Below are positions 4,228-26,626 of a stretch of DNA of 28,947 nt, piece by piece. This stretch comes from a virus. Position numbers and translations under genes: made by a program. The notes under the pieces were generated by a model. The model did no database searches. It was not told the origin of the DNA and saw nothing but the letters and a program-made list of their open reading frames with translations. The stretch is taken from positions 1 to 28,947 of the IMG/VR virus record IMGVR_UViG_3300009155_001883. One strand, written 5' to 3'. The stretch's first letter is position 1. The number at the start of each line of letters is the position of its first letter.

Positions 4228-4235
4228 TATTTATG
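4228..4235 (-). promoter_or_regulatory. T4-type late promoter box (CATAAATA)
   Basis: The minus-strand sequence CATAAATA matches the T4 late consensus TATAAATA at 7 of 8 bases. It lies in the short gap (4198-4246) between the 485-aa gene and the 117-aa gene, with the predicted RNA start near 4222 and the AGGAG ribosome site inside the leader. No -35 element is needed for gp55-type late promoters. Confidence 0.65.
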
Positions 4236-7019: not shown

Positions 7020-9256
7020 GAACTTATGGACCTGTTTGCTTTGAATGTTTTTAGATTGATGCCTTTTCTTTTCAACTCTAATTCATTATTATCTGAAGTT
7101 GATGTTGCATCTTCACCACCAGCACCAATTGATTCTGGAATACTAGTTGACTTGCCTTTTCTTTTCAAGTCAATCTTTTCACCAGATGGGCGTGCTAAGT
7201 TTTCACCAGAACTCGCCATTGAAAGACCAGACTCTATGCCTTTGTCGATACTTTCTTGGTGGTTTTGGAGGGCTGCTTTTTGCTTGGTGCGGATTTGGTT
7301 GATGGTGATTTTTTCTTTGTACGGTTTGGATTCACCTTGACCTTGTTCTGTACTGTTGACACCGATGCTGTCTGCGGCTGGGGTGAAGTTGTAGTTTCCA
7401 CTTTCAATTCCTCTGTTGGCAATTCTGCCTTCGGTAAGGATGTCTCTAATGGTTTTGGTTCCTTGGCGTTGCTCAAGAAGCTCTTTAGTAGTCTCAACAT
7501 TGTCATTCTCCTCTTTTATTTTAATTACATAACCTTTTGGATGTTTCATTACTTCACCACCACGCAGATGGGATTCTTTTGCAGCTGAACGGCGTAGCAA
7601 GAATACTCTTGGTTTTCCGCTTTTATCTCTCAACAATTTTACTTTCTTTTCTTCTGTAAATAATTCATCTTCTGATTCAGATAAGAAAGACTCAAATTCT
7701 TCATTTACCTTTTTAGGTTCTGATTTCTTCATTGAACTTCCTGAGGTTGGAACATTAGGTTCTTTATGTGCTTCTTTTTCAACCTCAACGAGTTTATCAT
7801 GCACAACTCTATGTGTTGTCTTACCATCTTTACCATATCTACCAAAACCATAATACTTCAAACCCATTCTGCGAGCTTCTTCAGCCGCACCTGAATCTGG
7901 ATGTGCAGTCTTCTCTGCGCCATCTTTTGGTATTGGTAGTGTATCTTTCTTTTGCATCTCCATAGCAATCCAGGCTGATGCAACAGGATTACTTGGTGGT
8001 TGTGCTACGAACTGTTGCATCTTTGTGTACATCTGAAGCATCTCATCTTTTTTAGCTTTGACTACATCAGGTGGTGCATTTCTTAAATCTTCAGAGTTAT
8101 CAAACTCCATGTAGTTATCACCAAACAACTTTGCAAACTCAGGGCGTCCTTGTTGTACGTTGTCCCATTTTTCTTTACGAATGTTTTCTGGTACTGTACG
8201 ACCACCACGTTGACCACGTTCTATGTTTCGTTGTTTAGATACTTCATCAGCAGTATTAACTAGAACCATTGATGAATCATAACCAATTTCTTCTAGTTTA
8301 CTTTTAATCTTTGTAATCTTTTCTACGTCATCGCCAGTGCCATTGATAATCAAACCATTACGACCTAGAATCGCAAGACGTTGACGCAACTCTGTAACAC
8401 TCTTTGCTTTGTCACGAACAATATTTCTTTTTTCTTCTTCTGATGCAGGCATAGTCTTATCAAGACCTTGTTTGTCCATTAAGAACTCAAGTGCCTTATC
8501 AGAATTCATCTCTGTCATTCCATGGCCTGCAAGTGTATTATCTAGCACATAGTCTTTACCAGAACCTGGTCCGCCTGCTAGAAATACTACTTTAAATATT
8601 GCTTTGTCATGTACACCTTCAAACAAAAGAGATTCAAATTCTTCATTGATACTCTCTTTGATTTGCATACCTTTACGCACATCAGCAAACATTTCTTTTG
8701 CATGATGTTCAGGTACATGTTTAGGAATACCCTTTTTGAATTCTTTGAAGTTGCCTTCTTTAGCATGTGCTCGCATTTTAGATGCAGACATACCAGCAGT
8801 ACCTTCAGCATCAGGGTCTCTTTCACCCGCACTGTGTACTGTTATCTTTTTGAAATTGAATAACTTACCCTTTTCAGGACCATTGTACTGTGCAAGTTTC
8901 TTTTCGTATTCTGGAACACGGTCTGAGCCTGCAACCATGTGTAAGTGTGTTACACCTTGTTTGTGTAACTTTTCTGCGTGAGAAAGGAATGTAGGCGATT
9001 CTTTACTAGAAGTAGAAAGATTCGTTTTTGAGAAGAATCGTTTTGCGTGTTTGAGTTTATCTTCTGCTGATAAAGGATTCTTGTCTTTATCGTGTGAGTG
9101 AGATAGAACTACGCTGTGACTGCCGCCGACAGATTTGGCAACATCTTTGACTTTGTTTACAAGGACTTCATGCCCTGTAGTAGGAGGAGACATGCGACCA
9201 AATGCCGTCACATGGTGAACCTCTTTGTTTTCTCTAATAAAATCTCTAAATTTCAT
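7016..9256 (-). CDS. Multidomain NMN-adenylyltransferase-like plus P-loop kinase virion-type protein (746 aa)
   Basis: Residues 1-9 (MKFRDFIRE) fit the targeting-like N-terminus. Residues 14-200 are a nucleotidyltransferase of the NMNAT/cytidylyltransferase fold: AFGRMSPPTTGHEVLVNKV at 18-36 is the HxGH region (first His replaced by Thr), and GMSASKMR at 155-162 is the second, ISSTxxR-like motif. Residues 220-400 are a P-loop kinase with Walker A GGPGSGKD (228-235), like zeta-toxin or polynucleotide kinases. NMNAT plus kinase recalls NadR. The domains are separated by near-duplicate linkers INEEFESLLFE (203-213) and VNEEFESFLSE (517-527); a further ILTEG lies at 606-610. Residues 540-580 form a small conserved domain; the tail from 610 on is low complexity and holds two LKRKG copies. 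The ribosome site GAGG is 6 bases before ATG, with a late promoter box upstream. Confidence 0.82.
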   Translation of the reverse strand: MKFRDFIRENKEVHHVTAFGRMSPPTTGHEVLVNKVKDVAKSVGGSHSVVLSHSHDKDKNPLSAEDKLKHAKRFFSKTNLSTSSKESPTFLSHAEKLHKQGVTHLHMVAGSDRVPEYEKKLAQYNGPEKGKLFNFKKITVHSAGERDPDAEGTAGMSASKMRAHAKEGNFKEFKKGIPKHVPEHHAKEMFADVRKGMQIKESINEEFESLLFEGVHDKAIFKVVFLAGGPGSGKDYVLDNTLAGHGMTEMNSDKALEFLMDKQGLDKTMPASEEEKRNIVRDKAKSVTELRQRLAILGRNGLIINGTGDDVEKITKIKSKLEEIGYDSSMVLVNTADEVSKQRNIERGQRGGRTVPENIRKEKWDNVQQGRPEFAKLFGDNYMEFDNSEDLRNAPPDVVKAKKDEMLQMYTKMQQFVAQPPSNPVASAWIAMEMQKKDTLPIPKDGAEKTAHPDSGAAEEARRMGLKYYGFGRYGKDGKTTHRVVHDKLVEVEKEAHKEPNVPTSGSSMKKSEPKKVNEEFESFLSESEDELFTEEKKVKLLRDKSGKPRVFLLRRSAAKESHLRGGEVMKHPKGYVIKIKEENDNVETTKELLEQRQGTKTIRDILTEGRIANRGIESGNYNFTPAADSIGVNSTEQGQGESKPYKEKITINQIRTKQKAALQNHQESIDKGIESGLSMASSGENLARPSGEKIDLKRKGKSTSIPESIGAGGEDATSTSDNNELELKRKGINLKTFKANRSISS

Positions 9257-9290
9257 TCTCCGCCTCTACAGCAGTTAGTTAATAGCGTAT

Positions 9291-10253
9291 TTAGTTATTT
9301 ATCAGCTTTAAAATTGCGTCTACAGAACTCTTTGTGATGTGATTATGAACGGCATATTCGTATGCATTATCAAGTTTTTCGTCATCTGGTCGTTTAAAAT
9401 TGACAAGATAGTCAGACAATTCTTTGTCATTCGTATAGGTTTTACCAAATTCTTTCATCATGGTTGCACCAGCAATATCTCTTGCAACCCATGGTGTATG
9501 ATTGAGCATAGATTCTACAAGAACAAGACCGAAGCCTTCTTCAAATGAGTGCATGATATACAGGTCGGCTTCTTTCATTGCATCAGCAACTTCTGCCTTG
9601 TCTTCAAGCATTAGAGGTTTAATAAACTCAGATTCTTCTGGCATCAAATCATGTCTATTATCATAACCAGTCAAAACTAATGTTGTATCAGGAATGTTCA
9701 GTATACTAAACAATTTTGCTAACTCTTTCATGCCTTTATGTGGCCAATATCCACCGCATGATAGGAACATATTCTTTGTTTTGATGCCATATCTCTCACG
9801 GAAACCTGGTCGACCAATCGCATGTGCTTCATTTACACTTAGATTAATCTTAACACTTCTACTCAATGCACCATGTTTCATTACATGATCCCAGTCTTGT
9901 GGTGTTCCACAACCAACCCATTTTGCGTCATTCAGTGCTTGCAAACACACAGCACTTTCTGATGGTTTGATTATGTAATACAATACTGGATATGGTAAAT
10001 TTTTGATGTTTACAAGAACAAGATTTTGAATACCAACATCACCACCATGAACAACAACTAAGTCCCATGGATAGTTAAATATGGCAGTGTCACTTGTTAC
10101 ATGAATTCCATTCCAATCACCTTTGTGTTCACCTGTAAATACAGCAACTTGATGACCTCGACTTAGAGTTTCTTCAGCCAAATCTCTTGTATGGTTTTCT
10201 GAACCACCAGGATAAGGTGCGTATCTGTGAACTACGTATAATATTTTTTTCAT
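9291..10253 (-). CDS. Glycosyltransferase family 4-type (GT-B) enzyme
   Basis: This 320-aa protein transfers a sugar from a nucleotide-activated donor to an acceptor. The N-terminal half opens with MKKILYVVHRYAPYPGGSEN and RDLAEETLSRGHQVAVFTGE, the usual acceptor-side Rossmann fold of GT4 enzymes. The C-terminal half has SCGGYWPHKGMKELAKLF (donor-domain start) and the E-x7-E motif in FEEGFGLVLVESM (Glu239 and Glu247). It is on the short side for the family but all core parts are present. No membrane segment is visible. It is the last gene of the sugar island, and its ATG overlaps the gmd stop by 4 bases. Donor could be the GDP-deoxysugar made by its neighbours; the acceptor (host surface glycan or virion protein) is unknown. 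Confidence 0.88.
   Translation of the reverse strand: MKKILYVVHRYAPYPGGSENHTRDLAEETLSRGHQVAVFTGEHKGDWNGIHVTSDTAIFNYPWDLVVVHGGDVGIQNLVLVNIKNLPYPVLYYIIKPSESAVCLQALNDAKWVGCGTPQDWDHVMKHGALSRSVKINLSVNEAHAIGRPGFRERYGIKTKNMFLSCGGYWPHKGMKELAKLFSILNIPDTTLVLTGYDNRHDLMPEESEFIKPLMLEDKAEVADAMKEADLYIMHSFEEGFGLVLVESMLNHTPWVARDIAGATMMKEFGKTYTNDKELSDYLVNFKRPDDEKLDNAYEYAVHNHITKSSVDAILKLINN
9296..9303 (-). promoter_or_regulatory. T4-type late promoter box (GATAAATA)
   Basis: GATAAATA on the minus strand matches TATAAATA at 7 of 8 bases. It overlaps the last codons of the glycosyltransferase gene and lies about 40 bases before the ATG of the 746-aa gene, placing the predicted RNA start near 9290. It would restart late transcription downstream of the sugar island. 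Confidence 0.55.
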
Positions 10254-17591: not shown

Positions 17592-18692
17592 TTAACTGTA
17601 CTTTATGAATATACTACTGTTCTTTGTTGCTGATGATGCATATTGGAAAATATATGCACATAACGCATCCATTTTATTATCTTTTAAGACTGTATAAACT
17701 AAATTGATTCCAATATACTTAGACATCCACCAAGTCTTATCTTTTCTGTGGCCAGTTTTTGCTTGAGTAATAAGTGTTTCTAGTTTCTCTTTTGATCCTG
17801 ATAGTTCTTTAAACATCATCGCAAATTTTTTAAAATCGGCATCTGATGGTTTATCAATAGGCGTTTGTTGTGGTAATGTTAGTTTTGTTTTTTGAACACC
17901 AACATCAATAGCACCTTCAAAAATAATACCGCCACCGATTTTACCACCTGCGGCCGCTTTACCTTTAATTTCACCTTGCCAAGAAGATGGAACTGGACGA
18001 CTTGAAAAGTTTCTCAACTGTACTTCACCTGCGGCACCTTCGGCATTGTATTGTATGTAAATGTCTTTCGAATCAGTCATATTCATACCAAGTTTAACGC
18101 CTGTAAATTTTGCAATAAGAGGTTTACCATTATTAAAAAACTTAGAATGTGGCAAATCTTTTGGTCCAATTTTTTTCAATGAAATACCAATCATATTAGT
18201 ATATGCAAATTCATCATACACATAACGATTATATTCCGTTAAAGTATTCCATCCTGATTTGAATCTGAATGTTTTTTTAATCATCCAAATGTCAGCAGGA
18301 TTCCATTTATCATCACCAGTTATACCACTATTCTTTTTGTGTTTTCTCCACTCATTATAAATGTCATCAACTACTTTTCCACCTCTGTAGAAAATAAAAT
18401 TTTTACCTGTACTTGCACCAGGAACTTCTTTAAAAATCAAATTAGCAGTTAACACAACACTTCTGAACCAATTTTCATCTAGGCCCGCCATACATTGTTT
18501 TAATGTTCTATCACAATCAGCATCAGAAGTAGTTTTTTCTGTTATTTGGTGAACATCGGTTAAATCTTTACCTAAATGTTGGCGTGTTGCACAAGCATAG
18601 GCCTGCAAACTCTCTGCCAAAGCAGTTACTTCAGAACCTGCACCAGAGACTTTTCCTTCTGTGTCTACATTAACTTTCGTTGGAATTTTCAT
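17592..18692 (-). CDS. Conserved late phage protein with possible PD-(D/E)xK nuclease pattern (366 aa)
   Basis: There is no confident assignment. Residues 103-138 read YRGGKVVDDIYNEW, then DDKWNPADIWMI; residues 168-174 read IGISLKK. Asp134 after a hydrophobic-PA step, followed about 37 residues later by a strand with Ser-x-Lys, is the pattern of PD-(D/E)xK nucleases, where the second acidic residue is sometimes replaced. Later, EVQLRNFSSRPVPSSWQGEI and GGKIGGGIIFEGA are strongly patterned and probably part of the fold. The C-terminal third is helical with TWWMSKYIGINLVY. It is the first gene of the late block, directly behind a perfect late promoter and hairpin, and 1 base before the ligase-like gene. 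A nuclease role is inference only. Confidence 0.72.
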   Translation of the reverse strand: MKIPTKVNVDTEGKVSGAGSEVTALAESLQAYACATRQHLGKDLTDVHQITEKTTSDADCDRTLKQCMAGLDENWFRSVVLTANLIFKEVPGASTGKNFIFYRGGKVVDDIYNEWRKHKKNSGITGDDKWNPADIWMIKKTFRFKSGWNTLTEYNRYVYDEFAYTNMIGISLKKIGPKDLPHSKFFNNGKPLIAKFTGVKLGMNMTDSKDIYIQYNAEGAAGEVQLRNFSSRPVPSSWQGEIKGKAAAGGKIGGGIIFEGAIDVGVQKTKLTLPQQTPIDKPSDADFKKFAMMFKELSGSKEKLETLITQAKTGHRKDKTWWMSKYIGINLVYTVLKDNKMDALCAYIFQYASSATKNSSIFIKYS

Positions 18693-18695
18693 TTT

Positions 18696-18723
18696 AAATA
18701 CCTAAATTGTTTATTAGGTATTT
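18696..18723 (-). promoter_or_regulatory. Hairpin covering the ribosome site, with late promoter in its 5' arm
   Basis: Minus-strand bases 18723-18714 (AAATACCTAA) and 18705-18696 (TTAGGTATTT) are perfect reverse complements, 10 base pairs with an 8-base loop. The 3' arm contains the AGG ribosome site, 8 bases before the ATG at 18692. The 5' arm includes the end of the TATAAATA box, so RNA that starts at the late promoter lacks it and cannot fold this way. Confidence 0.8.
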
Positions 18724-18726
18724 ATA
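18719..18726 (-). promoter_or_regulatory. Perfect T4-type late promoter (TATAAATA)
   Basis: TATAAATA on the minus strand is an exact match to the T4 late consensus. It lies in the 56-base gap between the replication operon and the 366-aa gene, with predicted RNA start near 18713 and ATG at 18692. It marks the boundary between early/middle and late transcription. Confidence 0.85.
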
Positions 18727-18748
18727 CTATCACAACTGCCGTATTATG

Positions 18749-20020
18749 TCAAGCGAAAAATGAATCTAGGGTATTCTTTTCTGTCTTTGGATACTCTGAA
18801 TTTCCTTTACGAAACACCCATATCGGTTCAATAAACACATCTTTCAATTCTACGGCATTGGGTCTGGCCATCATACGCATACCTATCTTGCCAACATAAA
18901 AAGAGTCTTCAAATGATGCAAAGTGTTCAACCATGTCATCACACAGAGGAAGTCTTTTAGACCCCTTGGTGCGTGGTTCTATGATGTTTATCATCATATA
19001 ACCATCTTGTTTGATTGTCTTCCATACTGTCTCAGTTACCTTAAAGAAGAAATCATATTTCCATCCATTGAATGAATCATATCTCGACCATGATTGATTG
19101 GCAGCCTTGTCAGTATCTGTTGCATACTTCTCTGTTTCAAAGTAAGGTGGTGATGTAAAATAGAAATCGAATGTGTCAACATACAAATCCCAATTCACAT
19201 CTTCTGATGGAAGATTCCAAATCTTTACAGTCTTCTTACCGATACATTCAAAGTAATCTGTCTTCTCAATTAGAGTTGGTTCACCACCAAGAAGTCTTTC
19301 ATATGCGACACATTGTTTCTTGTACACCTCAAACACATCAGGATTTGGGTCACAACCAACATACATCTTTGTACATGGTGTGCCATAGAATCCTGCAAGT
19401 CTATCACCCCATCCGCATGATGTATCTAATACATTTTGTGCCTTATGTTTTTCATACAAGGCTTTTGCAACGGATGGTCTGAATTGTGTTGCAGTATATG
19501 TGCCTAATCTAAATGCAGTACGAAATGTAGCCTCATTCAAATCATTGTCACCCATAATACCTTCACGCCAAAAAGTCCAGTTCATCTTACTTAACTTATC
19601 TTTGTCGTTCCAGATTTCTAATGGTGCAGATGATGAATTAGAACCACATTTCATTCGGTTCATTTGCTGAAAATAATCACTCACTACATTGTAATGATTT
19701 GATTTATCAATCACACCTAAAGGCATATCAGAGTATTTGTATTTGTAATTGTATCGTTCTTCAACTACATCAAAATCTTTGTACTGGTCTAAATGAGAAC
19801 GATAATAGAAGTCAGTGAAATAACTATTCACTTCATGCAACTCGCAATCATTTGTCGGAAAAGGAACATTGTTTCTATGTACATACTCAGCCAAAGATTG
19901 ACGAATATCATCTTTTTCATATGTAACAATCAATGATTTCCAATTTTCTGATTTGACATTTGGTATGCCACGACTATCACAAGTTTTAGAAAAGTAATCT
20001 ACAAGTTCTTCTTTAATCAT
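18749..20020 (-). CDS. DNA methyltransferase (TSPPY type)
   Basis: This 423-aa protein has a SAM motif NVLDTSCGWGDRLAGFYG (residues 196-213), then MYVGCDPNPDVFEVY (strand 2, acidic), and the catalytic motif YFTSPPYFETEKY (287-299). S/T-P-P-Y is the motif IV of amino-methyltransferases acting on N6-adenine or N4-cytosine in DNA. The 190 residues before motif I are a phage-type extension, with no clear target-recognition motif that I can name. It overlaps the gp41 gene by 4 bases, so it is made with the replication proteins. Probable role: methylating phage DNA against host restriction or in regulation; specificity cannot be read from sequence. It is the last gene before the late promoter. Confidence 0.88.
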   Translation of the reverse strand: MIKEELVDYFSKTCDSRGIPNVKSENWKSLIVTYEKDDIRQSLAEYVHRNNVPFPTNDCELHEVNSYFTDFYYRSHLDQYKDFDVVEERYNYKYKYSDMPLGVIDKSNHYNVVSDYFQQMNRMKCGSNSSSAPLEIWNDKDKLSKMNWTFWREGIMGDNDLNEATFRTAFRLGTYTATQFRPSVAKALYEKHKAQNVLDTSCGWGDRLAGFYGTPCTKMYVGCDPNPDVFEVYKKQCVAYERLLGGEPTLIEKTDYFECIGKKTVKIWNLPSEDVNWDLYVDTFDFYFTSPPYFETEKYATDTDKAANQSWSRYDSFNGWKYDFFFKVTETVWKTIKQDGYMMINIIEPRTKGSKRLPLCDDMVEHFASFEDSFYVGKIGMRMMARPNAVELKDVFIEPIWVFRKGNSEYPKTEKNTLDSFFA

Positions 20021-21408
20021 ACTTTCAAACCACCAAAGTCTTTTCTTCGTTCACGGTTACCAAATGTGTTCAGAGGTTTATCAGGAATGCCTGCATCAGC
20101 AATATCTTGTTGTGCGGATTCTTCAACATCATATAGTCTCATCTTCGCACGGTCAATACCGAGAACGAATCGTTTATACAAGTTAGGATCACCATAACGA
20201 TTCTTCAACTGTTTAACCAGAATTTGTCCTAGAGCCTCAAGTTCTTCATTACTCACTAACGCAAACATAAAGTCAGCAGTCGCAGGCAAACCAAAAGATT
20301 CTGAAGTATCTTCAAGACCAGGATCCGAATTACTGAAACCACTACGTGTTGTTTGTGTTGCAGATACAACTGGTACACTAAACTCAACAGCAAGACCACG
20401 TAGTTCTTCTGCAATCGCCTTGATGTATGAGTAACTGTTTACGTTTGCACCAGGTTTAATTCTAGCAGAACAACAGATGTTTAGATAATCAATAAAGATA
20501 ATATCAGGTCTGAAATTCTTCTTCAAAGCCAAGTCATTCAACAATGCACGGAAGTGGAGTACACTTGCACCAGCAGTTGGGTATTCTTTGATGATTAGTT
20601 TACCATGTGTCTTAGATTTCAATGCAGAGAATTTTCTTGTGTAATCTTCTTTACTGATTGTTTTCAATTCATCCAAATCAATATTTAGCAAATTAGCATC
20701 AATACGTTCTGCAATCTTTTCTTCTGCCATCTCCATTGTGATATAGAGAACATTTTGTCCTTGCGACAAATTACCAGCAGCAACGTGACACATGAACAAA
20801 GACTTACCAACACCAGTGCCAGCAAGTGCAATGTTCAATGTCTTAATTGGAAGACCACCCTTTGTAATCTTATTAAAGAGGTCAAGGTCAAAACGAATAC
20901 GTGATTCTACTTTGTGGTATGAATCATAACGAGAATCATAATCTTGTGTGTAATCATGCCCGATGTTATTATCAAATGAAACACCAAGAGCATCACTTAG
21001 AAGTTGTGGGATTTCTCCCTTAGTTCTTTTCTCACCCTTACTATCCAAAATAGAAACAGATTCCATAATGGCATTGTAGATGGCTTTATCTTGGCAAAAC
21101 TTTTCAGTTTGTTCAATCAGCCATTGTGTTTCAGTTGGTTCATCTCTATCTGAATGTACTTTGTTTAGTAATTCGATTGCCTCTTGTACTTGAGGCTCAG
21201 TTAGATTTTTCTTCTCTGTGAAATTGATTACAAGTGCCTCATGCGTAGGAGGATTCTTGTACTGATTAATGAATTCAAATATTTCTTTGAATACTACCTT
21301 TTCGGTGTTGTCAGAGAAATAATCTGGTCGAATGAATGGTAATACTTTACGAACATATTCCTCATTGTATATCAAATTCTTGATTATTGTCTGTTCTAGT
21401 CTGTTCAT
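20017..21408 (-). CDS. 41: Replicative DNA helicase gp41 (DnaB-like)
   Basis: This is the hexameric 5'-3' helicase that unwinds the fork and partners with primase in T4-like phages. The N-terminal part (MNRLEQTIIKNLIYNEEYVR onward) is the DnaB-type helical domain. The RecA-like core starts near residue 170, with Walker A GTGVGKSLF at 197-205, YITMEMAEEKIAERIDANLL as the H1a/E region, DIIFIDYLNICCS as Walker B, and SVPVVSATQTTRSGFSNSD as the helicase H3 region. LKNRYGDPN near the end carries the arginine-finger-like motif of DnaB proteins. Length (463 aa) is close to T4 gp41 (475). The start overlaps the gp40-like gene by 47 bases, but the N-terminal sequence fits the family well. Confidence 0.95.
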   Translation of the reverse strand: MNRLEQTIIKNLIYNEEYVRKVLPFIRPDYFSDNTEKVVFKEIFEFINQYKNPPTHEALVINFTEKKNLTEPQVQEAIELLNKVHSDRDEPTETQWLIEQTEKFCQDKAIYNAIMESVSILDSKGEKRTKGEIPQLLSDALGVSFDNNIGHDYTQDYDSRYDSYHKVESRIRFDLDLFNKITKGGLPIKTLNIALAGTGVGKSLFMCHVAAGNLSQGQNVLYITMEMAEEKIAERIDANLLNIDLDELKTISKEDYTRKFSALKSKTHGKLIIKEYPTAGASVLHFRALLNDLALKKNFRPDIIFIDYLNICCSARIKPGANVNSYSYIKAIAEELRGLAVEFSVPVVSATQTTRSGFSNSDPGLEDTSESFGLPATADFMFALVSNEELEALGQILVKQLKNRYGDPNLYKRFVLGIDRAKMRLYDVEESAQQDIADAGIPDKPLNTFGNRERRKDFGGLKV

Positions 21409-21670
21409 TTTGAGCCGTTATAATTACACTAAGTATGTCACCCATGATTGTATGCAATTTTGGATCGTTTGTCAAGTCATCAATGTCTTGTTCACCTGGA
21501 TGAACAATCGTATATCCGAATTGCAAACGAGCAAATTCACCTTCTTCTACAATCTTCGCTTTGTGATAATGGTATATCACCCCTTTATATTCTTCTACAA
21601 GGAGTTCTATACCAGTTAAATCACTGTCTTTGAAGTTGATAAAATTATAATCAACGCCTTCGTTATACAT
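21362..21670 (-). CDS. gp40-like head vertex assembly chaperone candidate (102 aa)
   Basis: I prefer the ATG at 21670 (MYNEGVDYNFINFKDSDLTG), which overlaps the uvsX stop by 8 bases. Earlier in-frame ATGs at 21730 and 21718 lie inside uvsX and give residues unlike any conserved start. The protein has ELLVEEYKGVIYHYHKAKIV, EFARLQFGYTIVHPGEQDID and HTIMGDILSVII. T4 gene 40, which sits between uvsX and 41, encodes a small protein of this size reported to assist head vertex assembly, and the L-F-x-Y plus IMGDIL ending agrees with my memory of that family. The identification rests on position and pattern, not a search. The 3' end overlaps gp41 by 47 bases. Confidence 0.65.
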   Translation of the reverse strand: MYNEGVDYNFINFKDSDLTGIELLVEEYKGVIYHYHKAKIVEEGEFARLQFGYTIVHPGEQDIDDLTNDPKLHTIMGDILSVIITAQNEQTRTDNNQEFDIQ

Positions 21671-22721
21671 CGCCTGTTTCTTCTTCCAGAACAGGAGTTT
21701 CTCCCATAATGTTCCCATATGCAATCTCATATTTTTGTTTAATGAAGTCTTTGAATTTGGAATCTTTTAGGATAGATTCCATAAACTCAGCATTTGCAGT
21801 ATCAGCGATACGTTTCTTATCACCAATCTCGCCTGTCTTCTGGTCTACCTTTGCATACCAACCATTGGTTGGCTTGACCACATGCCCGGATTCCATCGCA
21901 AGGTCAAGTAGACCAGAGTACTTACTAATACCACCATCAAAAGATACAGAGATAGGTATTTTAGATTTTTCTTTAACATATCTAGATTTTTCTACGTTGA
22001 TAATGAAGTTGTAACCAACAATTTCTGTTCCGTCTTTTTCTTGTTGGCGGCCGATGATATAGATGTTGTCAGCAGAGTAGTAAGAACCTGTACCACCGCC
22101 AACGATATCTTTCGGGAACATACCAATCTCTTTGTAGGTGTGATTAACAACAACCATTGGAATGTCTTTGATGTTCAAGTGTGGAGTTACCATACGGAAC
22201 AAACTCTTAACTTGTTTTGCACGACTCATATCAGCAACTGATTTGCCTTCTAGTGCATCTTCAACTTCTTTCTTTGATGCAAGATTACCAATAGAATCAA
22301 GAATGATAATCAATTTATCGCCACGATTCACCTCAGATAATTGTTGCATGATATCAAACTTCAACTGTTCAATGTCAGTCAAAGGTGTATGCAATACTCT
22401 GTCCATATCAATCTCAAATGTTTCAAAGTATTTTACTGGTGTACCAAACTCTGAATCATAGAATAAAAGGACTGCCTCAGGGTATTTGTCCATATACGAT
22501 TTCGCCATTAGCAAACTGAAGGCAGTCTTAAAGTGTTTTGATGGTCCTGCCCACATTGTAAGACCAGGCACAATACCACCATCAAGTCTTCCAGATAGTG
22601 CCACGTTAATCATTGGCACACCTGTTGTAACCATATCTTTCTCAGTAAAGAATTTTGATTTAGATAGAATTGCACTATCTTTAATCGTTGAATTCTTTTT
22701 AATCTTATCCAATAAACTCAT
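21663..22721 (-). CDS. uvsX: UvsX RecA-like recombinase
   Basis: This is the strand-exchange protein of T4-like phages, working in recombination-dependent replication and repair. It has 352 aa (T4 391). Walker A is GPSKHFKT at residues 59-66, in the context GIVPGLTMWAGPSKHFKTAF, which is the UvsX form rather than bacterial RecA. Walker B is KLIIILDSIGNLAS around residues 134-147. AKQVKSLFRMVTPHLNIKDI and VVVNHTYKEIGMFPKDIVGG are typical UvsX core segments, and the C-terminus is acidic (EEETGDV). Order gp43, two genes, uvsX, gp40-like, gp41 is a compact version of the T4 arrangement. It overlaps the membrane-protein gene by 4 bases. Confidence 0.96.
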   Translation of the reverse strand: MSLLDKIKKNSTIKDSAILSKSKFFTEKDMVTTGVPMINVALSGRLDGGIVPGLTMWAGPSKHFKTAFSLLMAKSYMDKYPEAVLLFYDSEFGTPVKYFETFEIDMDRVLHTPLTDIEQLKFDIMQQLSEVNRGDKLIIILDSIGNLASKKEVEDALEGKSVADMSRAKQVKSLFRMVTPHLNIKDIPMVVVNHTYKEIGMFPKDIVGGGTGSYYSADNIYIIGRQQEKDGTEIVGYNFIINVEKSRYVKEKSKIPISVSFDGGISKYSGLLDLAMESGHVVKPTNGWYAKVDQKTGEIGDKKRIADTANAEFMESILKDSKFKDFIKQKYEIAYGNIMGETPVLEEETGDV

Positions 22722-23539
22722 TTAAAATCTCCATTCATTTTGGTAATCTGTGTTTTAGGTATAACTTCGTTTCTATCATCCGCCATGAATGATTCTACAC
22801 TAATAGTAGGGGTGCTGTCAAGTTCTTTTTTCCTCTTTGCCTTCTTAGTCGGTTCTACTTCAACTGGTATCTTTAGTCTTTGGTATGTTTGATTTGATGC
22901 AATCAATAACAACACTGCCAATGGGTCGAATACGATAATGATAATTAGAATTACACTTCGTACTGCTTTATCTATGAAGTTCGGATCATCCTTACTATAG
23001 AATAACTCGGCTATGTACTTGATAGGACCAATTTCTGCCGTTAGTTTGTTTTCTTCTGATAACAAAGGTAACTTATCAGTTGAAATTCTTTTGAGTTCTG
23101 CCTGTGTTTCTTGGATTTGTACATCAATCTTCCGTGTTGCAGTTGCTGGGTCGCCTGCTCTTTGCAATAGATAATTCAATCTTTCTTTTGCAATCTTCTC
23201 TTGTGATTCTAGTGTTTTTAATTGAACACTATTTGCACCAACAACAATGTTTGTATCAAGGTGTGCCTTTGAAAGATAACCAAAGATACCCATTGATGTA
23301 ATCAACATTAAAAGAATGATGGCACCTAAAAAATAATAACGCATTATCTTTGCAGTATCATTCCAGTTGTTATACAACCAAGATACTGTTACCAACTTTG
23401 ATGCTTCAAGTACAGAACCCATAATGATAATTGGCCAGTATGAACCTGGAAATATCTGTGCGAGTCCGATAACAGAATAGTATGCTGCAATCGCTGATAA
23501 TCCTATTGCAGTTAGAAATGGTAACAGTACTTGTATCAT
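22718..23539 (-). CDS. Four-helix membrane protein of the replication operon (273 aa)
   Basis: Four hydrophobic segments are visible: residues 5-28 (LLPFLTAIGLSAIAAYYSVI), 34-55, 67-88 and 192-214 (VRSVILIIIIVFDPLAVLLL). Between helices 3 and 4 is a long charged helical stretch (105-170), probably coiled coil. The C-terminal tail (218-273) is basic then acidic. I recognise the N-terminal pattern PFLTAIGLSAIAAYYSVIGL plus LEASKLVTVSWLYNNW from other marine T4-like phages, where its function is not known. It is not holin-like in size or layout. ATGA overlaps with uvsX and with the oxygenase gene tie its expression to replication. Possible roles: membrane anchoring of replication or superinfection exclusion; neither is supported by direct evidence. 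Confidence 0.85.
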   Translation of the reverse strand: MIQVLLPFLTAIGLSAIAAYYSVIGLAQIFPGSYWPIIIMGSVLEASKLVTVSWLYNNWNDTAKIMRYYFLGAIILLMLITSMGIFGYLSKAHLDTNIVVGANSVQLKTLESQEKIAKERLNYLLQRAGDPATATRKIDVQIQETQAELKRISTDKLPLLSEENKLTAEIGPIKYIAELFYSKDDPNFIDKAVRSVILIIIIVFDPLAVLLLIASNQTYQRLKIPVEVEPTKKAKRKKELDSTPTISVESFMADDRNEVIPKTQITKMNGDFK

Positions 23540-24084
23540 GGGTTCTTCTTTGAATGTGGAACATCAAACACAAAGGTAATTCTCGTACAATCTCCTATGT
23601 TTTTTGTTCCGTGCATTAATTTGTTATTGAACCAAAGTAAAGTACCTGGTTCAACGATTACAGTTTCTCCACCAACAGTGTATTCATATCGGCCTTGAAT
23701 TGATAAATGATATCTATCCTTAGTTTGATAGTATGAACCAATATCAATATGTTGACCGACTTCACCACCTTTTTCTAGTGATAGAAAACCGCATCTGCAA
23801 AAACTATGAAAGTGCCTTCTGAGAAACTGAATGACTTCTGTGTGTCTATCATATGCTGGTGTTGCAATATTAATTTCACTATCACCAACGAATTGATTTA
23901 CGTCAGTGACAGCACCAATAACTAATTGCATAACACCAGCAGGTAGATTCATAAAGCCTTTGTCTAACAAAGACTTAGCGCCTTCAATGTTTTTTTGAGC
24001 ACCCCAATCTTCAGGATACTTTTCTAACTGTCTCATTATTTTTGAGACATTGATACCTGTTTTAATGATACGGATATTATCCAA
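23536..24084 (-). CDS. 2-oxoglutarate/Fe(II) oxygenase (aspartyl/asparaginyl hydroxylase-like)
   Basis: The likely start is a TTG at 24084, because GGAG sits 6 bases before it and no ATG is near; this gives 182 aa starting MDNIRIIKTG and an 8-base overlap with the DNA polymerase gene. The cupin-type core has GQHIDIGSYY (His-x-Asp iron ligands), HLSIQGRYEYTVGGE, and LLWFNNKLMHGTKN (distal His), followed by CTRITFVFDV, where Arg would bind 2-oxoglutarate. This is the aspartyl/asparaginyl beta-hydroxylase layout. Phage 2OG oxygenases are common in marine T4-like genomes, with unknown substrates. Tight coupling to gp43 suggests a role during replication, such as modifying a protein or nucleotide; this is inference. 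Confidence 0.86.
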   Translation of the reverse strand: MDNIRIIKTGINVSKIMRQLEKYPEDWGAQKNIEGAKSLLDKGFMNLPAGVMQLVIGAVTDVNQFVGDSEINIATPAYDRHTEVIQFLRRHFHSFCRCGFLSLEKGGEVGQHIDIGSYYQTKDRYHLSIQGRYEYTVGGETVIVEPGTLLWFNNKLMHGTKNIGDCTRITFVFDVPHSKKNP

Positions 24085-26626
24085 AGAAACTCTCCAGTGA
24101 ATTCTGTTTCTCAATTGTCCAATTCATACAATCTAAAATCACTTTGATGGGCTCAAGGAATGACTTTTCAAATTGCATATCATAGTCAACATAGTCATGC
24201 ATACCAAACTCTTTAGGTAATCTATTTGGAAATGATATGACTGTATCTTTGAAAGGATTAGGTTGTTTCAGATACGTGAATTTAAGTTTCTCACCCTCTT
24301 GTATCAGAGCATAAGTCTTTGTCAAATTCATCTGTTTCAAATAATGATTATAAAGAATTGCACCCTTAACATGAATAGGTGTGCCTTTCTTATACATCAT
24401 AACTGAATCAGCATATTCTTTCAGACCATTTACACCTCTTGGAAAAGAAATGTCTTCTGGTGGCAACTTCTTAAACTCTTGTCTAAAGTCTTCAATAAAA
24501 GTATGTAGGTCTTCTTGTGTACCATTAATCATAATCTTAATAGTCTGTTTCATCTTCTCACGGATAGCCGCAGGTGTAGATGACTTAATCATTTCAAGAC
24601 CCATAACTTTCATTTGAGGTTCTTTATATGCAACTCCCTCATTGTTATACACGTTTAGAATGTATCGTTTCTTGGCAGTCCAAATACCTTTGTTCGCCAA
24701 TGCCTCACGTTTCATTTGCATTTTTTGTGCGTATGCGTGAACATACGTAGCAAGCTCCTGATAACTCTGGTCAATGTACGGTTGTATCTTATATTCACAG
24801 ACACGGTCCATGAAGGAGATAATCTGATTAACATCCGTCTTCTCAGAATACACCTTGTTAACAAGTGGACCAAGACGGAGATAAATCGAATCTGTGTCTG
24901 AGGCGATAACGTAATCTTCATTCGTCTTCAATAGGTTATTCAGATAGTTGTTGAGTTTCTTCTCAATCCATCGAATAGAAAACTGACCAGCAGTAGTAAC
25001 ACCAAGAGCCATACGCAGGTCATAGAACCTAAAGTATTGTGACCCTAGAGCACCATAGGCACTGTTTAGTGAAACTTTCTTTGCAAGTTGCAAGTTGTCA
25101 TATCGAGCAATCTTATTTTTTAATTCTTTCTTTTTGTTCGGGTCAGTTTCGACTTCATAGTCTTTCTTCGCCTGAATCATCATCTTCTTAAACTTACTTC
25201 GGTCAACATACATTTCTTCTAACATCTTAGGTAAGAAACCTTGTTTGTCAGTACGGAAGAATTGACCATTAGGTGTAAGTGTGACATTCGTTAGTTTGGA
25301 AGTATCAACTTCTTTTTCTAACAACTTGTCAACAGTAACGCCACGCATAATTACTTCACGCATTTCTGGTGTGTAATCAGAAGCTTCAACCAATGTCTCT
25401 GGTGAGATATTGTATTGCATCATCAAGTGTGGATACAAACTGTTCAAGTCAAACGATGCTACATAATTATGTAGTCCGACTTGTGGCACTTTAACATATG
25501 CACCCTCAAAGGCTGATGACTTATGTTTTTCTTCTTTCGGTGGCACAATGATGTTCTTCTGCAACAAGTAATTGTAGATTAGAGCATCCCACATTCTTGT
25601 TTGTGCAAAGATATCTTCAAAGTTTGTTTTAGTATCATACGCAAGAGTAAGACCCAATTCAATCAACTTCAGTTTGTTCTCAAGTTTAAAAATCAACACA
25701 ACATCTTTGATGTTGTACTCAATAAACTTTTGATGATTCAATCGGTACAATGCATGTAGATTATCATACTCATCATATGAAATCTTGCCTTCACCAAGTT
25801 CTACTTGTGCAATCGCATCTAGTCTATATGACTCTTGTGATTTACCACCTGGCGCATACCATCTGTATAACTCAATATAGTCTAGTGTAGATACACCGAC
25901 CAATTCATATGCAGTCAACTCTTGGTTGTTCATAATAGCTTTTCGGCTACTGATATAATTCCATGGTGACAACTTCTTAGTATTGTCTTCACCAAGAATC
26001 TTATTGAAACGATTAATCAAATATGGAATATCAAAGAACTTAATGTTCCATCCTGAAATTACATCAGGGCAATTCTCTTCCCAAAAACGCAGGAACTTTT
26101 TGCATAGATTATATTCGTCTTCACACTTGACATAGGTTACATTCGTAGTATCATTTTCTTTGTCAAGGTTCTTATCATAATCACCACAACCAAACACAAC
26201 TGTTTGACCATTGAGATACTTAATACAAATCGCAGTGATTGGTTCGTTTGCAAGATATGGGTCGGGGAATCCATTCTCAGAACCAACTTCAATATCTATT
26301 ACTGCAATTGAAAGGTCTTCAATCTTCCATTCAACCATTTCTTTTTGTTCATCAGCAATGAACGCATAGGTATAGTTACTGTTGCCAAAGATTTTAAAGT
26401 TCTGTACTTCTTTATACCTGTTTACGAAATCACGAGCATCACGAATGTTTTCAAACTTCATTGGCTCGAGATATTCATCATCTAATGATGTGAATTTTGT
26501 TTGTTTGTTGGATGGCAAAAACAAAGTCGGCGTGTAAGCAATTTCCAACTTAACACGCCGTCCTTCTTTTACCCCACGATAAAGAATGTTGTTGCCTATT
26601 GCGGCAACATTAGTATAATAATTCAT
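24077..26626 (-). CDS. 43: DNA polymerase gp43 (family B)
   Basis: This 849-aa replicative polymerase has 3'-5' proofreading and polymerase domains as in T4 (898 aa). Exonuclease residues: Exo I VIDIEVGS (Asp111, Glu113), Exo II WNIKFFDIP (Asp199), Exo III YNIKDVV (Asp308). Polymerase motifs: A SFDLNSLYPHLM (Asp393 and SLYP), B KKVSLNSAYGALG (516-528), C ASDTDSIY (575-582). The C-terminal end SLESFFG resembles the T4 gp43 tail that binds the sliding clamp. The ribosome site before ATG is weak. A 7-base-pair hairpin lies just inside the gene at 26590-26609. The gene is uninterrupted (no intein or intron), unlike some relatives. Confidence 0.97.
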   Translation of the reverse strand: MNYYTNVAAIGNNILYRGVKEGRRVKLEIAYTPTLFLPSNKQTKFTSLDDEYLEPMKFENIRDARDFVNRYKEVQNFKIFGNSNYTYAFIADEQKEMVEWKIEDLSIAVIDIEVGSENGFPDPYLANEPITAICIKYLNGQTVVFGCGDYDKNLDKENDTTNVTYVKCEDEYNLCKKFLRFWEENCPDVISGWNIKFFDIPYLINRFNKILGEDNTKKLSPWNYISSRKAIMNNQELTAYELVGVSTLDYIELYRWYAPGGKSQESYRLDAIAQVELGEGKISYDEYDNLHALYRLNHQKFIEYNIKDVVLIFKLENKLKLIELGLTLAYDTKTNFEDIFAQTRMWDALIYNYLLQKNIIVPPKEEKHKSSAFEGAYVKVPQVGLHNYVASFDLNSLYPHLMMQYNISPETLVEASDYTPEMREVIMRGVTVDKLLEKEVDTSKLTNVTLTPNGQFFRTDKQGFLPKMLEEMYVDRSKFKKMMIQAKKDYEVETDPNKKKELKNKIARYDNLQLAKKVSLNSAYGALGSQYFRFYDLRMALGVTTAGQFSIRWIEKKLNNYLNNLLKTNEDYVIASDTDSIYLRLGPLVNKVYSEKTDVNQIISFMDRVCEYKIQPYIDQSYQELATYVHAYAQKMQMKREALANKGIWTAKKRYILNVYNNEGVAYKEPQMKVMGLEMIKSSTPAAIREKMKQTIKIMINGTQEDLHTFIEDFRQEFKKLPPEDISFPRGVNGLKEYADSVMMYKKGTPIHVKGAILYNHYLKQMNLTKTYALIQEGEKLKFTYLKQPNPFKDTVISFPNRLPKEFGMHDYVDYDMQFEKSFLEPIKVILDCMNWTIEKQNSLESFFG
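26590..26609 (-). promoter_or_regulatory. Inverted repeat at codons 6-12 of gp43, candidate RNA hairpin
   Basis: On the mRNA, TGTTGCC (26609-26603) and GGCAACA (26596-26590) pair perfectly over 7 bases with a 6-base loop GCAATA. The hairpin starts 17 bases after the A of the ATG. T4 gp43 represses its own translation by binding an RNA hairpin, but in T4 it lies before the start codon, so equivalence is only a possibility. Confidence 0.45.

What the first reader, a model, noticed from the sequence alone, without database searches (positions are those of the whole stretch)
18690..18726. Late promoter inside a hairpin that hides the ribosome site: a T4 lysozyme-style early-off/late-on switch
The sequence shows a perfect TATAAATA box, a perfect 10-bp inverted repeat with 8-base loop, and the AGG ribosome site and ATG in and after the 3' arm. 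RNA reading through from the replication operon would fold the hairpin and hide the ribosome site. RNA starting at the late promoter (near 18713) lacks the 5' arm and would be translated. This arrangement is established for T4 genes e, soc and I-TevI, but I do not know it described for this marine gene.
Basis: partly seen in the sequence, partly recalled or inferred. Interest (0 to 1): 0.8.

Follow-up and report, generated by a model that had tools for sequence, protein, structure and literature searches.

The report
Late promoter inside ribosome-site-hiding hairpin
In an uncultured T4-like phage, a late-gene promoter lies within an RNA hairpin that hides the ribosome-binding site, so messages that start upstream should stay silent and only late messages should be translated; related phages keep this pairing despite changed sequences, and most also carry an overlapping host-type (early) promoter.

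Summary
Observation confirmed. On the minus strand are TATAAATA (18719-18726), a perfect 11-bp inverted repeat (arms 18714-18724 and 18695-18705, 8-nt loop), TAGG in the 3' arm and ATG at 18690-18692. It is the only perfect inverted repeat of at least 10 bp with a short loop in the window. All eight long relative records encode gp55. ATAAATA sites cluster before gene starts, but only this gene has the hairpin. T4 controls segB, soc and 49 show the same anatomy, so this is a T4-type early-off/late-on switch on a new gene.

Beyond the finding: (1) a conserved sigma70 promoter (TTGACA-N17-TANNAT) overlaps the late box, with selection on the DNA itself; its predicted start lies inside the 5' arm, so 'early-off' depends on an unmapped RNA end. 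(2) One relative group replaces the hairpin with a predicted leaderless arrangement. (3) Some cyanophage homologs carry the late box in the loop of a terminator-like hairpin. No RNA or protein data were available.

The parts
18719..18726 (-). T4-type late promoter box TATAAATA; predicted RNA start near 18713
   Evidence: gp55 in relatives; the start is inferred by analogy with T4
18714..18724 (-). 5' arm of the hairpin (TAAATACCTAA); its outer 6 bases are the end of the late box
   Evidence: covariation
18706..18713 (-). 8-nt loop (TAAACAAT)
   Evidence: loop length and sequence vary in relatives
18695..18705 (-). 3' arm of the hairpin (TTAGGTATTTA), containing the SD
18701..18704 (-). Shine-Dalgarno-like TAGG, 8 nt before the start codon, sequestered in the 3' arm
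18690..18692 (-). ATG start codon of the regulated gene (outside the stem)
17592..18692 (-). Regulated gene, 366 aa, phrog_1462 family of unknown function; cyanophage orthologs T4-GC533, one (S-SCSM1) annotated as virion protein
   Evidence: structure model pLDDT 82.7 with no PDB fold match
18747..18752 (-). -35-like TTGACA of an overlapping sigma70 promoter
18724..18729 (-). -10-like TAGTAT, 17 nt from TTGACA, sharing AT with the late box; predicted start near 18717, inside the 5' arm
   Evidence: conserved as TANNAT in relatives
18749..20020 (-). Upstream gene on the same strand (DNA-methyltransferase-like), last gene of the replication block; its TGA overlaps the TTGACA
20017..26626 (-). 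Replication genes: gp41-like helicase, UvsX, DNA polymerase; source of possible read-through RNA

Best explanation
This is a T4-type translational switch. Any RNA that begins upstream of the hairpin, such as read-through from the replication genes, folds the 11-bp hairpin, hides TAGG and translates the 366-aa gene poorly. Late in infection gp55-RNA polymerase starts at the TATAAATA box; the new RNA begins near 18713, lacks the 5' arm, cannot fold, and is translated. An overlapping conserved sigma70 promoter would give early RNAs starting around 18717, inside the inner 5' arm, which should keep part of the hairpin. Shown: the anatomy, covariation of the stem, position-specific late boxes, gp55 in relatives, sequence-level selection on TTGACA. 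Inferred: both RNA starts, the translation effect, the timing.
For: Hairpin present and beyond chance. 41 of 53 distinct relative leaders keep box plus hairpin. On 31 distinct leaders 83.1% of pair cells are paired, against 46% or less when slid; 51 double-change cells against 19.9 +/- 5.5, 0/500 shuffles; the four varying inner pairs lie outside the promoter box. Swapping 3' arms between relatives loses pairing energy (sum -328 against -215 +/- 15, 0 of 20,000 permutations as good). On a tree the pair states change at least 10, 6, 13 and 14 times, and among independent contrasts the 3' base follows the 5' base with almost none opposite. gp55 is in 8/8 long relatives. ATAAATA precedes gene starts 16/20, 17/19, 10/11 and 3/4 times, and only this gene has the hairpin. 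Predicted SD exposure is about 0 in read-through RNA and about 0.67 (median) in late RNA. The T4 controls segB, soc and 49 show the same design, and the mechanism is established for T4 e, soc, 49 and I-TevI (PMC3014915, PMC2988022).
Against: No RNA-end, structure-probing or translation data. The overlapping sigma70 promoter could give early RNA with a largely free SD if it starts at or after box position +9. One relative group (3 distinct leaders) has the same promoters with no hairpin and an ATG 8 and 14 nt after the box. Nine further distinct leaders lack a clear hairpin, and one counted as hairpin (L067) has no SD to hide. The product is of unknown function, so a need for late-only expression is not shown.
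Confidence: 0.77

Rival explanations
1. The gene is a 'middle' gene with overlapping early (sigma70) and late promoters, expressed in both phases. The hairpin only silences read-through RNA from upstream, because sigma70 RNA starts far enough inside the 5' arm to leave the SD free.
For: TTGACA-N16/17-TANNAT is conserved at the DNA level. Overlapping early and late promoters replacing MotA-type middle promoters are proposed for RB49, S-PM2 and Syn9 (PMC2984593). RNA from box position +9 onward exposes the SD. The leaderless group has ATGs that fit both predicted starts.
Against: The canonical sigma70 start (7 nt after the -10) is at +8, where the SD is still mostly hidden (median 0.30 free at 37 C, 0.10 at 10 C). 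The hairpin is largely missing in relatives that lack the sigma70 site (8 of 11) and present where it exists (38 of 42), which suggests the hairpin acts on sigma70 RNA too; these relatives are not independent of each other.
Confidence: 0.3
2. The inverted repeat is a DNA operator or a protein-binding RNA site rather than a self-sufficient RBS-hiding hairpin.
For: A perfect palindrome sits at a promoter; T4 uses RNA-binding repressors such as RegA and gp43 (PMC3014915).
Against: Stem and loop sequences and loop lengths differ widely while pairing, including G-U pairs, is kept; a protein site should conserve sequence.
Confidence: 0.05
3. The hairpin is a transcription terminator or attenuator that blocks early read-through.
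For: Cyanophage homologs have GC-rich stems followed by T-runs at this place, with the late box in the loop.
Against: In the window the stem is AT-rich, followed by AAATG with no T-run, and is not called by the terminator scan.
Confidence: 0.04
4. Chance coincidence of an AT-rich palindrome and a TATA-like box.
For: ATAAATA is short and the region AT-rich; TATAAATA is not over-represented in the window.
Against: Shuffle tests and conservation with compensatory changes.
Confidence: 0.01

Closest known systems
T4 genes 49 and segB leaders
   Same: ATAAATA late box forms the base of the 5' arm, stem hides the SD in the 3' arm, late RNA lacks the 5' arm; recovered by the same code. Such structures are reported for 49 and segB (PMC3014915, PMC2988022).
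   Different: Different gene (phrog_1462) and phage lineage; an overlapping conserved sigma70 promoter is present here.
T4 gene e (lysozyme), soc and I-TevI leaders
   Same: Early and middle read-through RNA is silenced by a hairpin; late promoter RNA is translated (PMC3014915, PMC2988022).
   Different: The product here is an uncharacterised, probably virion-associated protein at the replication/late boundary. The e and I-TevI leaders were not compared here at sequence level.
Overlapping early and late promoters of RB49, S-PM2 and Syn9
   Same: sigma70-like and NATAAATA-type sites in front of one gene (PMC2984593).
   Different: No RBS-hiding hairpin spanning both starts is described in the passages I read.
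Cyanophage T4-GC533 leaders (Syn1, S-WAM2, ACG-2014e/i/j, S-CAM4, S-CREM1)
   Same: Homologous gene, same synteny, [CA]TAAATA box before the ATG, SD in the 3' arm of a hairpin.
   Different: The box is in the loop rather than the arm, and the stem is GC-rich with a T-rich run after it, so it may also terminate transcription.

Membership tests
T4-type late-promoter/RBS-hairpin switch | Consensus late promoter (TATAAATA) just upstream of the gene | tested here: met
T4-type late-promoter/RBS-hairpin switch | Phage encodes the late sigma factor gp55 | tested here: met
   8 of 8 long relative records; the 29-kb window is itself a fragment and was not shown to carry it
T4-type late-promoter/RBS-hairpin switch | Hairpin sequesters the SD in longer RNA | tested here: met
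   prediction supported by covariation
T4-type late-promoter/RBS-hairpin switch | Late RNA starts inside or after the 5' arm and cannot fold the hairpin | tested here: inconclusive
   Position fits, but the RNA start is inferred, not mapped
T4-type late-promoter/RBS-hairpin switch | Gene lies downstream of early/middle genes on the same strand | tested here: met
T4-type late-promoter/RBS-hairpin switch | Read-through RNA poorly translated, late RNA well translated | not testable with these tools
   needs infection or reporter data
Overlapping early/late ('middle') promoter | sigma70 -35/-10 overlapping the late box, under selection | tested here: met
   43 of 48 distinct upstream sequences; Asp codon GAC in 59 of 62 at this site against 17-36% at other conserved Asp sites
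Overlapping early/late ('middle') promoter | Transcription in both phases | not testable with these tools
   no RNA data
Intrinsic terminator | GC-rich stem followed by a T-run | tested here: not met
   AT-rich stem, no T-run in the window
RNA thermometer | SD exposure changes within the growth temperature range | tested here: not met
   median SD exposure of read-through RNA is 0 at 10, 20 and 37 C
Rfam RNA families | Match at gathering score | tested here: not met

The most novel reading that the evidence does not exclude
A sigma-factor-read start-site switch: a sigma70 promoter and a gp55 promoter share bases, their RNA starts lie about 4 nt apart, and the inner arm of the hairpin lies between them, so which sigma factor starts the RNA decides whether the ribosome site is hidden. 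Relatives solve the same problem by leaderless starts (no hairpin) or, in cyanophages, by a late box inside a terminator loop.
Probability: 0.3. Interest if true: 0.75.

Novelty: new variant of a known kind. Interest (0 to 1): 0.55.

Why it matters
It carries a mechanism proved in coliphage T4 into uncultured aquatic T4-like phages, with compensatory changes across dozens of distinct leaders. It marks the gene at the boundary between the replication block and the late virion block, and it makes a precise prediction: a 4-nt difference in RNA start could toggle translation. The comparison also exposes a second possible way of tying translation to late promoters in these phages, leaderless late mRNAs.

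Tried and rejected
Gapped pattern search for the whole element in long relatives gave no hit because the pattern demanded a fixed SD spacing; replaced by per-locus scanning. DNA similarity of the gap to cultured phages: none. Rfam: none. Function of the protein: no Pfam family and no PDB fold match at E <= 0.001; the only informative homologs are from cyanophages, Campylobacter phages and unnamed phages. My first description of the leaderless class as including the major capsid gp23, written in a working note, was wrong: that gene (G001 130710) is a baseplate wedge protein. Terminator, thermometer and protein-operator readings were considered and put low. Sign tests on single base pairs in the tree lack power (under 6 informative contrasts).

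Full report
WHAT IS THERE. All genes in this stretch run on the minus strand. Between a methyltransferase-like gene (18749-20020) at the end of a UvsX/gp41-helicase/DNA-polymerase block and a 366-aa gene (17592-18692) lies a 56-nt gap. Read on the minus strand it holds TATAAATA (18719-18726), a perfect 11-bp inverted repeat with an 8-nt loop (18695-18724), TAGG in the 3' arm, and ATG at 18692. Read-through RNA folds this hairpin (-11.4 kcal/mol, z -2.9), while RNA from 18713 does not (-1.1). With the box held fixed, shuffling the rest of the leader never gave 11 bp in 20,000 trials, and this is the only such repeat in the window.

IS THE BOX A LATE PROMOTER. All eight long relative records encode a gp55 family protein (phrog_234, E about 1e-63). 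In three long relatives and the window, ATAAATA is rare and lies 8-60 nt before a gene start in 16/20, 17/19, 10/11 and 3/4 cases. Two permuted control motifs (AAATATA, ATATAAA) do so far less often; TAAATAA, which overlaps the box, is enriched as well. In each of these genomes only the phrog_1462 gene has an SD-hiding hairpin at its late box, so the hairpin is not a general property of AT-rich late leaders here.

IS THE HAIRPIN REAL AS RNA. Four scans of viral contigs gave 243 locus records of the gene (many contigs recur between scans), which with the window hold 53 distinct leaders. Forty-one have box plus hairpin, with stems such as CCTAA/TTAGG, CCTGA/TCAGG, CCTAG/CTAGG, CTCC/GGAG, CTTGGT/ACCGAG and CCCAA/TTGGG. 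On 31 distinct leaders 83.1% of pair cells are standard pairs against at most 46% when the partner is slid, and 51 cells carry changes on both sides against 19.9 +/- 5.5 in shuffles (0/500). The four covarying pairs lie outside the promoter box, so promoter conservation cannot explain them. Swapping 3' arms between relatives is worse than the native combination in every one of 20,000 permutations. On a protein tree the pair states change at least 10, 6, 13 and 14 times, and in independent contrasts the two sides move together, almost never oppositely; single-column sign tests are underpowered. G-U pairs and variable loops favour RNA pairing over a DNA operator.

THE OVERLOOKED PART. Upstream of the box, 43 of 48 distinct sequences carry TTGACA 16-17 nt before TANNAT, whose AT is the first AT of ATAAATA. 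In most relatives TTGACA falls in the last codons (..IDIIR*) of the preceding gene. The Asp codon there is GAC in 59 of 62 sequences, whereas other conserved Asp positions of the same gene use GAC in only 17-36%; in the first set the leaders with GAT are ones without the promoter spacing. In the window the preceding gene is a different one and ends in another frame, yet TTGACA is kept. This is selection on DNA and fits a sigma70 promoter. Similar TTGACA/TATAAT sites stand before replication genes, although the total count of weak promoter matches in the region is no higher than chance. Among 85 late boxes in seven genomes and the window, this overlap at 2 mismatches or fewer occurs at 7 copies of this gene and one other gene.

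WHAT THAT MEANS. Counting from the first A of ATAAATA, the sigma70 start is expected at +8 (18717) and the late start at +12 (18713). The late value follows from the T4 rule that the box lies about one helical turn upstream of the start (PMC2988020), with the usual -13 to -6 numbering from my own knowledge. Predicted SD exposure (median, 37 C) is about 0 in read-through RNA, 0.06 for RNA from +7, 0.30 from +8, 0.56 from +9, and 0.67 for late RNA; cooling to 10 C keeps the order. The inner arm therefore sits between the two predicted starts. If sigma70 RNA starts at or before about +8 the gene is off early and on late from both RNA sources. If it starts later, the gene is simply an early-plus-late gene whose read-through RNA is silenced. 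Only 5'-end mapping can decide.

RELATIVES THAT DIFFER. Three distinct leaders have the sigma70 site and the box but no hairpin, with in-frame ATGs 8 and 14 nt after the box, matching leaderless starts. Relatives scored as lacking the sigma70 site mostly also lack the hairpin (8 of 11), but they are related to each other, and one of them (L219) has a shifted TTGACA-N17-TATAAA, so this association is not strong evidence. In cultured cyanophages the orthologous gene (T4-GC533) keeps its place after gp41 and before virion-type genes and has [CA]TAAATA 16-43 nt before its ATG in 16 of 16 cases. In Syn1, S-WAM2, ACG-2014e/i/j, S-CAM4 and S-CREM1 the box is in the loop of a strong hairpin (-13.5 to -18.2 kcal/mol) whose 3' arm holds the SD and is followed by a T-rich run, so it may terminate early RNA as well as hide the SD.

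COMPARISON WITH THE KNOWN. The mechanism is established for T4 e, soc, 49 and I-TevI and reported for segB and mobE (PMC3014915, PMC2988022). Run on T4, the same code finds hairpins at segB, soc and 49, with box-to-ATG anatomy like the one here. It works like these, and by sequence features belongs with them; the functional criterion (differential translation) is untested. Differences are the gene, the lineage, the overlapping sigma70 promoter and the leaderless and terminator-like alternatives. The product remains uncharacterised. Its probable virion role rests on synteny and one annotation.

VERDICT. Confidence is 0.77 in the hairpin/late-promoter switch, and about 0.3 in the stronger idea that sigma-factor choice toggles the hairpin through a 4-nt shift in RNA start.

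Noticed in passing
Relatives G001-G007 (loci L093-L113, L121-L140), late boxes listed: Late boxes fall into two classes by distance to the ATG: 8-17 nt (32 cases) and 24-61 nt (53), none at 18-23. The short class lacks an SD (4/32 with at least 4 nt, against 38/53; random about 7%) and includes baseplate wedge, tail tube, head-tail adaptor and tail-fibre genes: predicted leaderless late mRNAs. The late T4 genes checked have none (minimum 19 nt).
   Followed up: partly
window 9256-9302 (-) and long relatives in L093-L140: The leader of the large nucleotidyltransferase/kinase-like gene carries a sequence-conserved (C/T)GCTGTAGAGGCGG just before the ATG in the window and most long relatives. Unlike the hairpin studied here it keeps its sequence, so it may bind a protein or hold a special ribosome site.
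   Followed up: no
L083, L084, L089, L304, L305, L306, L310: Cyanophage homologs have the late box inside the loop of a terminator-like hairpin whose 3' arm is the SD, followed by a T-rich run and the ATG.
   Followed up: partly
window 18749-20020 against L004, L009, L065: The gene upstream of the hairpin differs: a methyltransferase-like gene in the window, a 371-aa gene ending ..DIIR* in the three relatives read in full. The window keeps a remnant of that ending (TTGACATAATACGG) out of frame, suggesting gene replacement with a junction at the promoter.
   Followed up: partly
L028, L029, L032, L033: These relatives carry a different upstream sequence and no ATAAATA box before the same gene.
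   Followed up: no
window 4228-4234 and 9296-9302 (-): Two further late boxes of the window lie 37 and 46 nt before gene starts and have no SD-hiding hairpin.
   Followed up: yes
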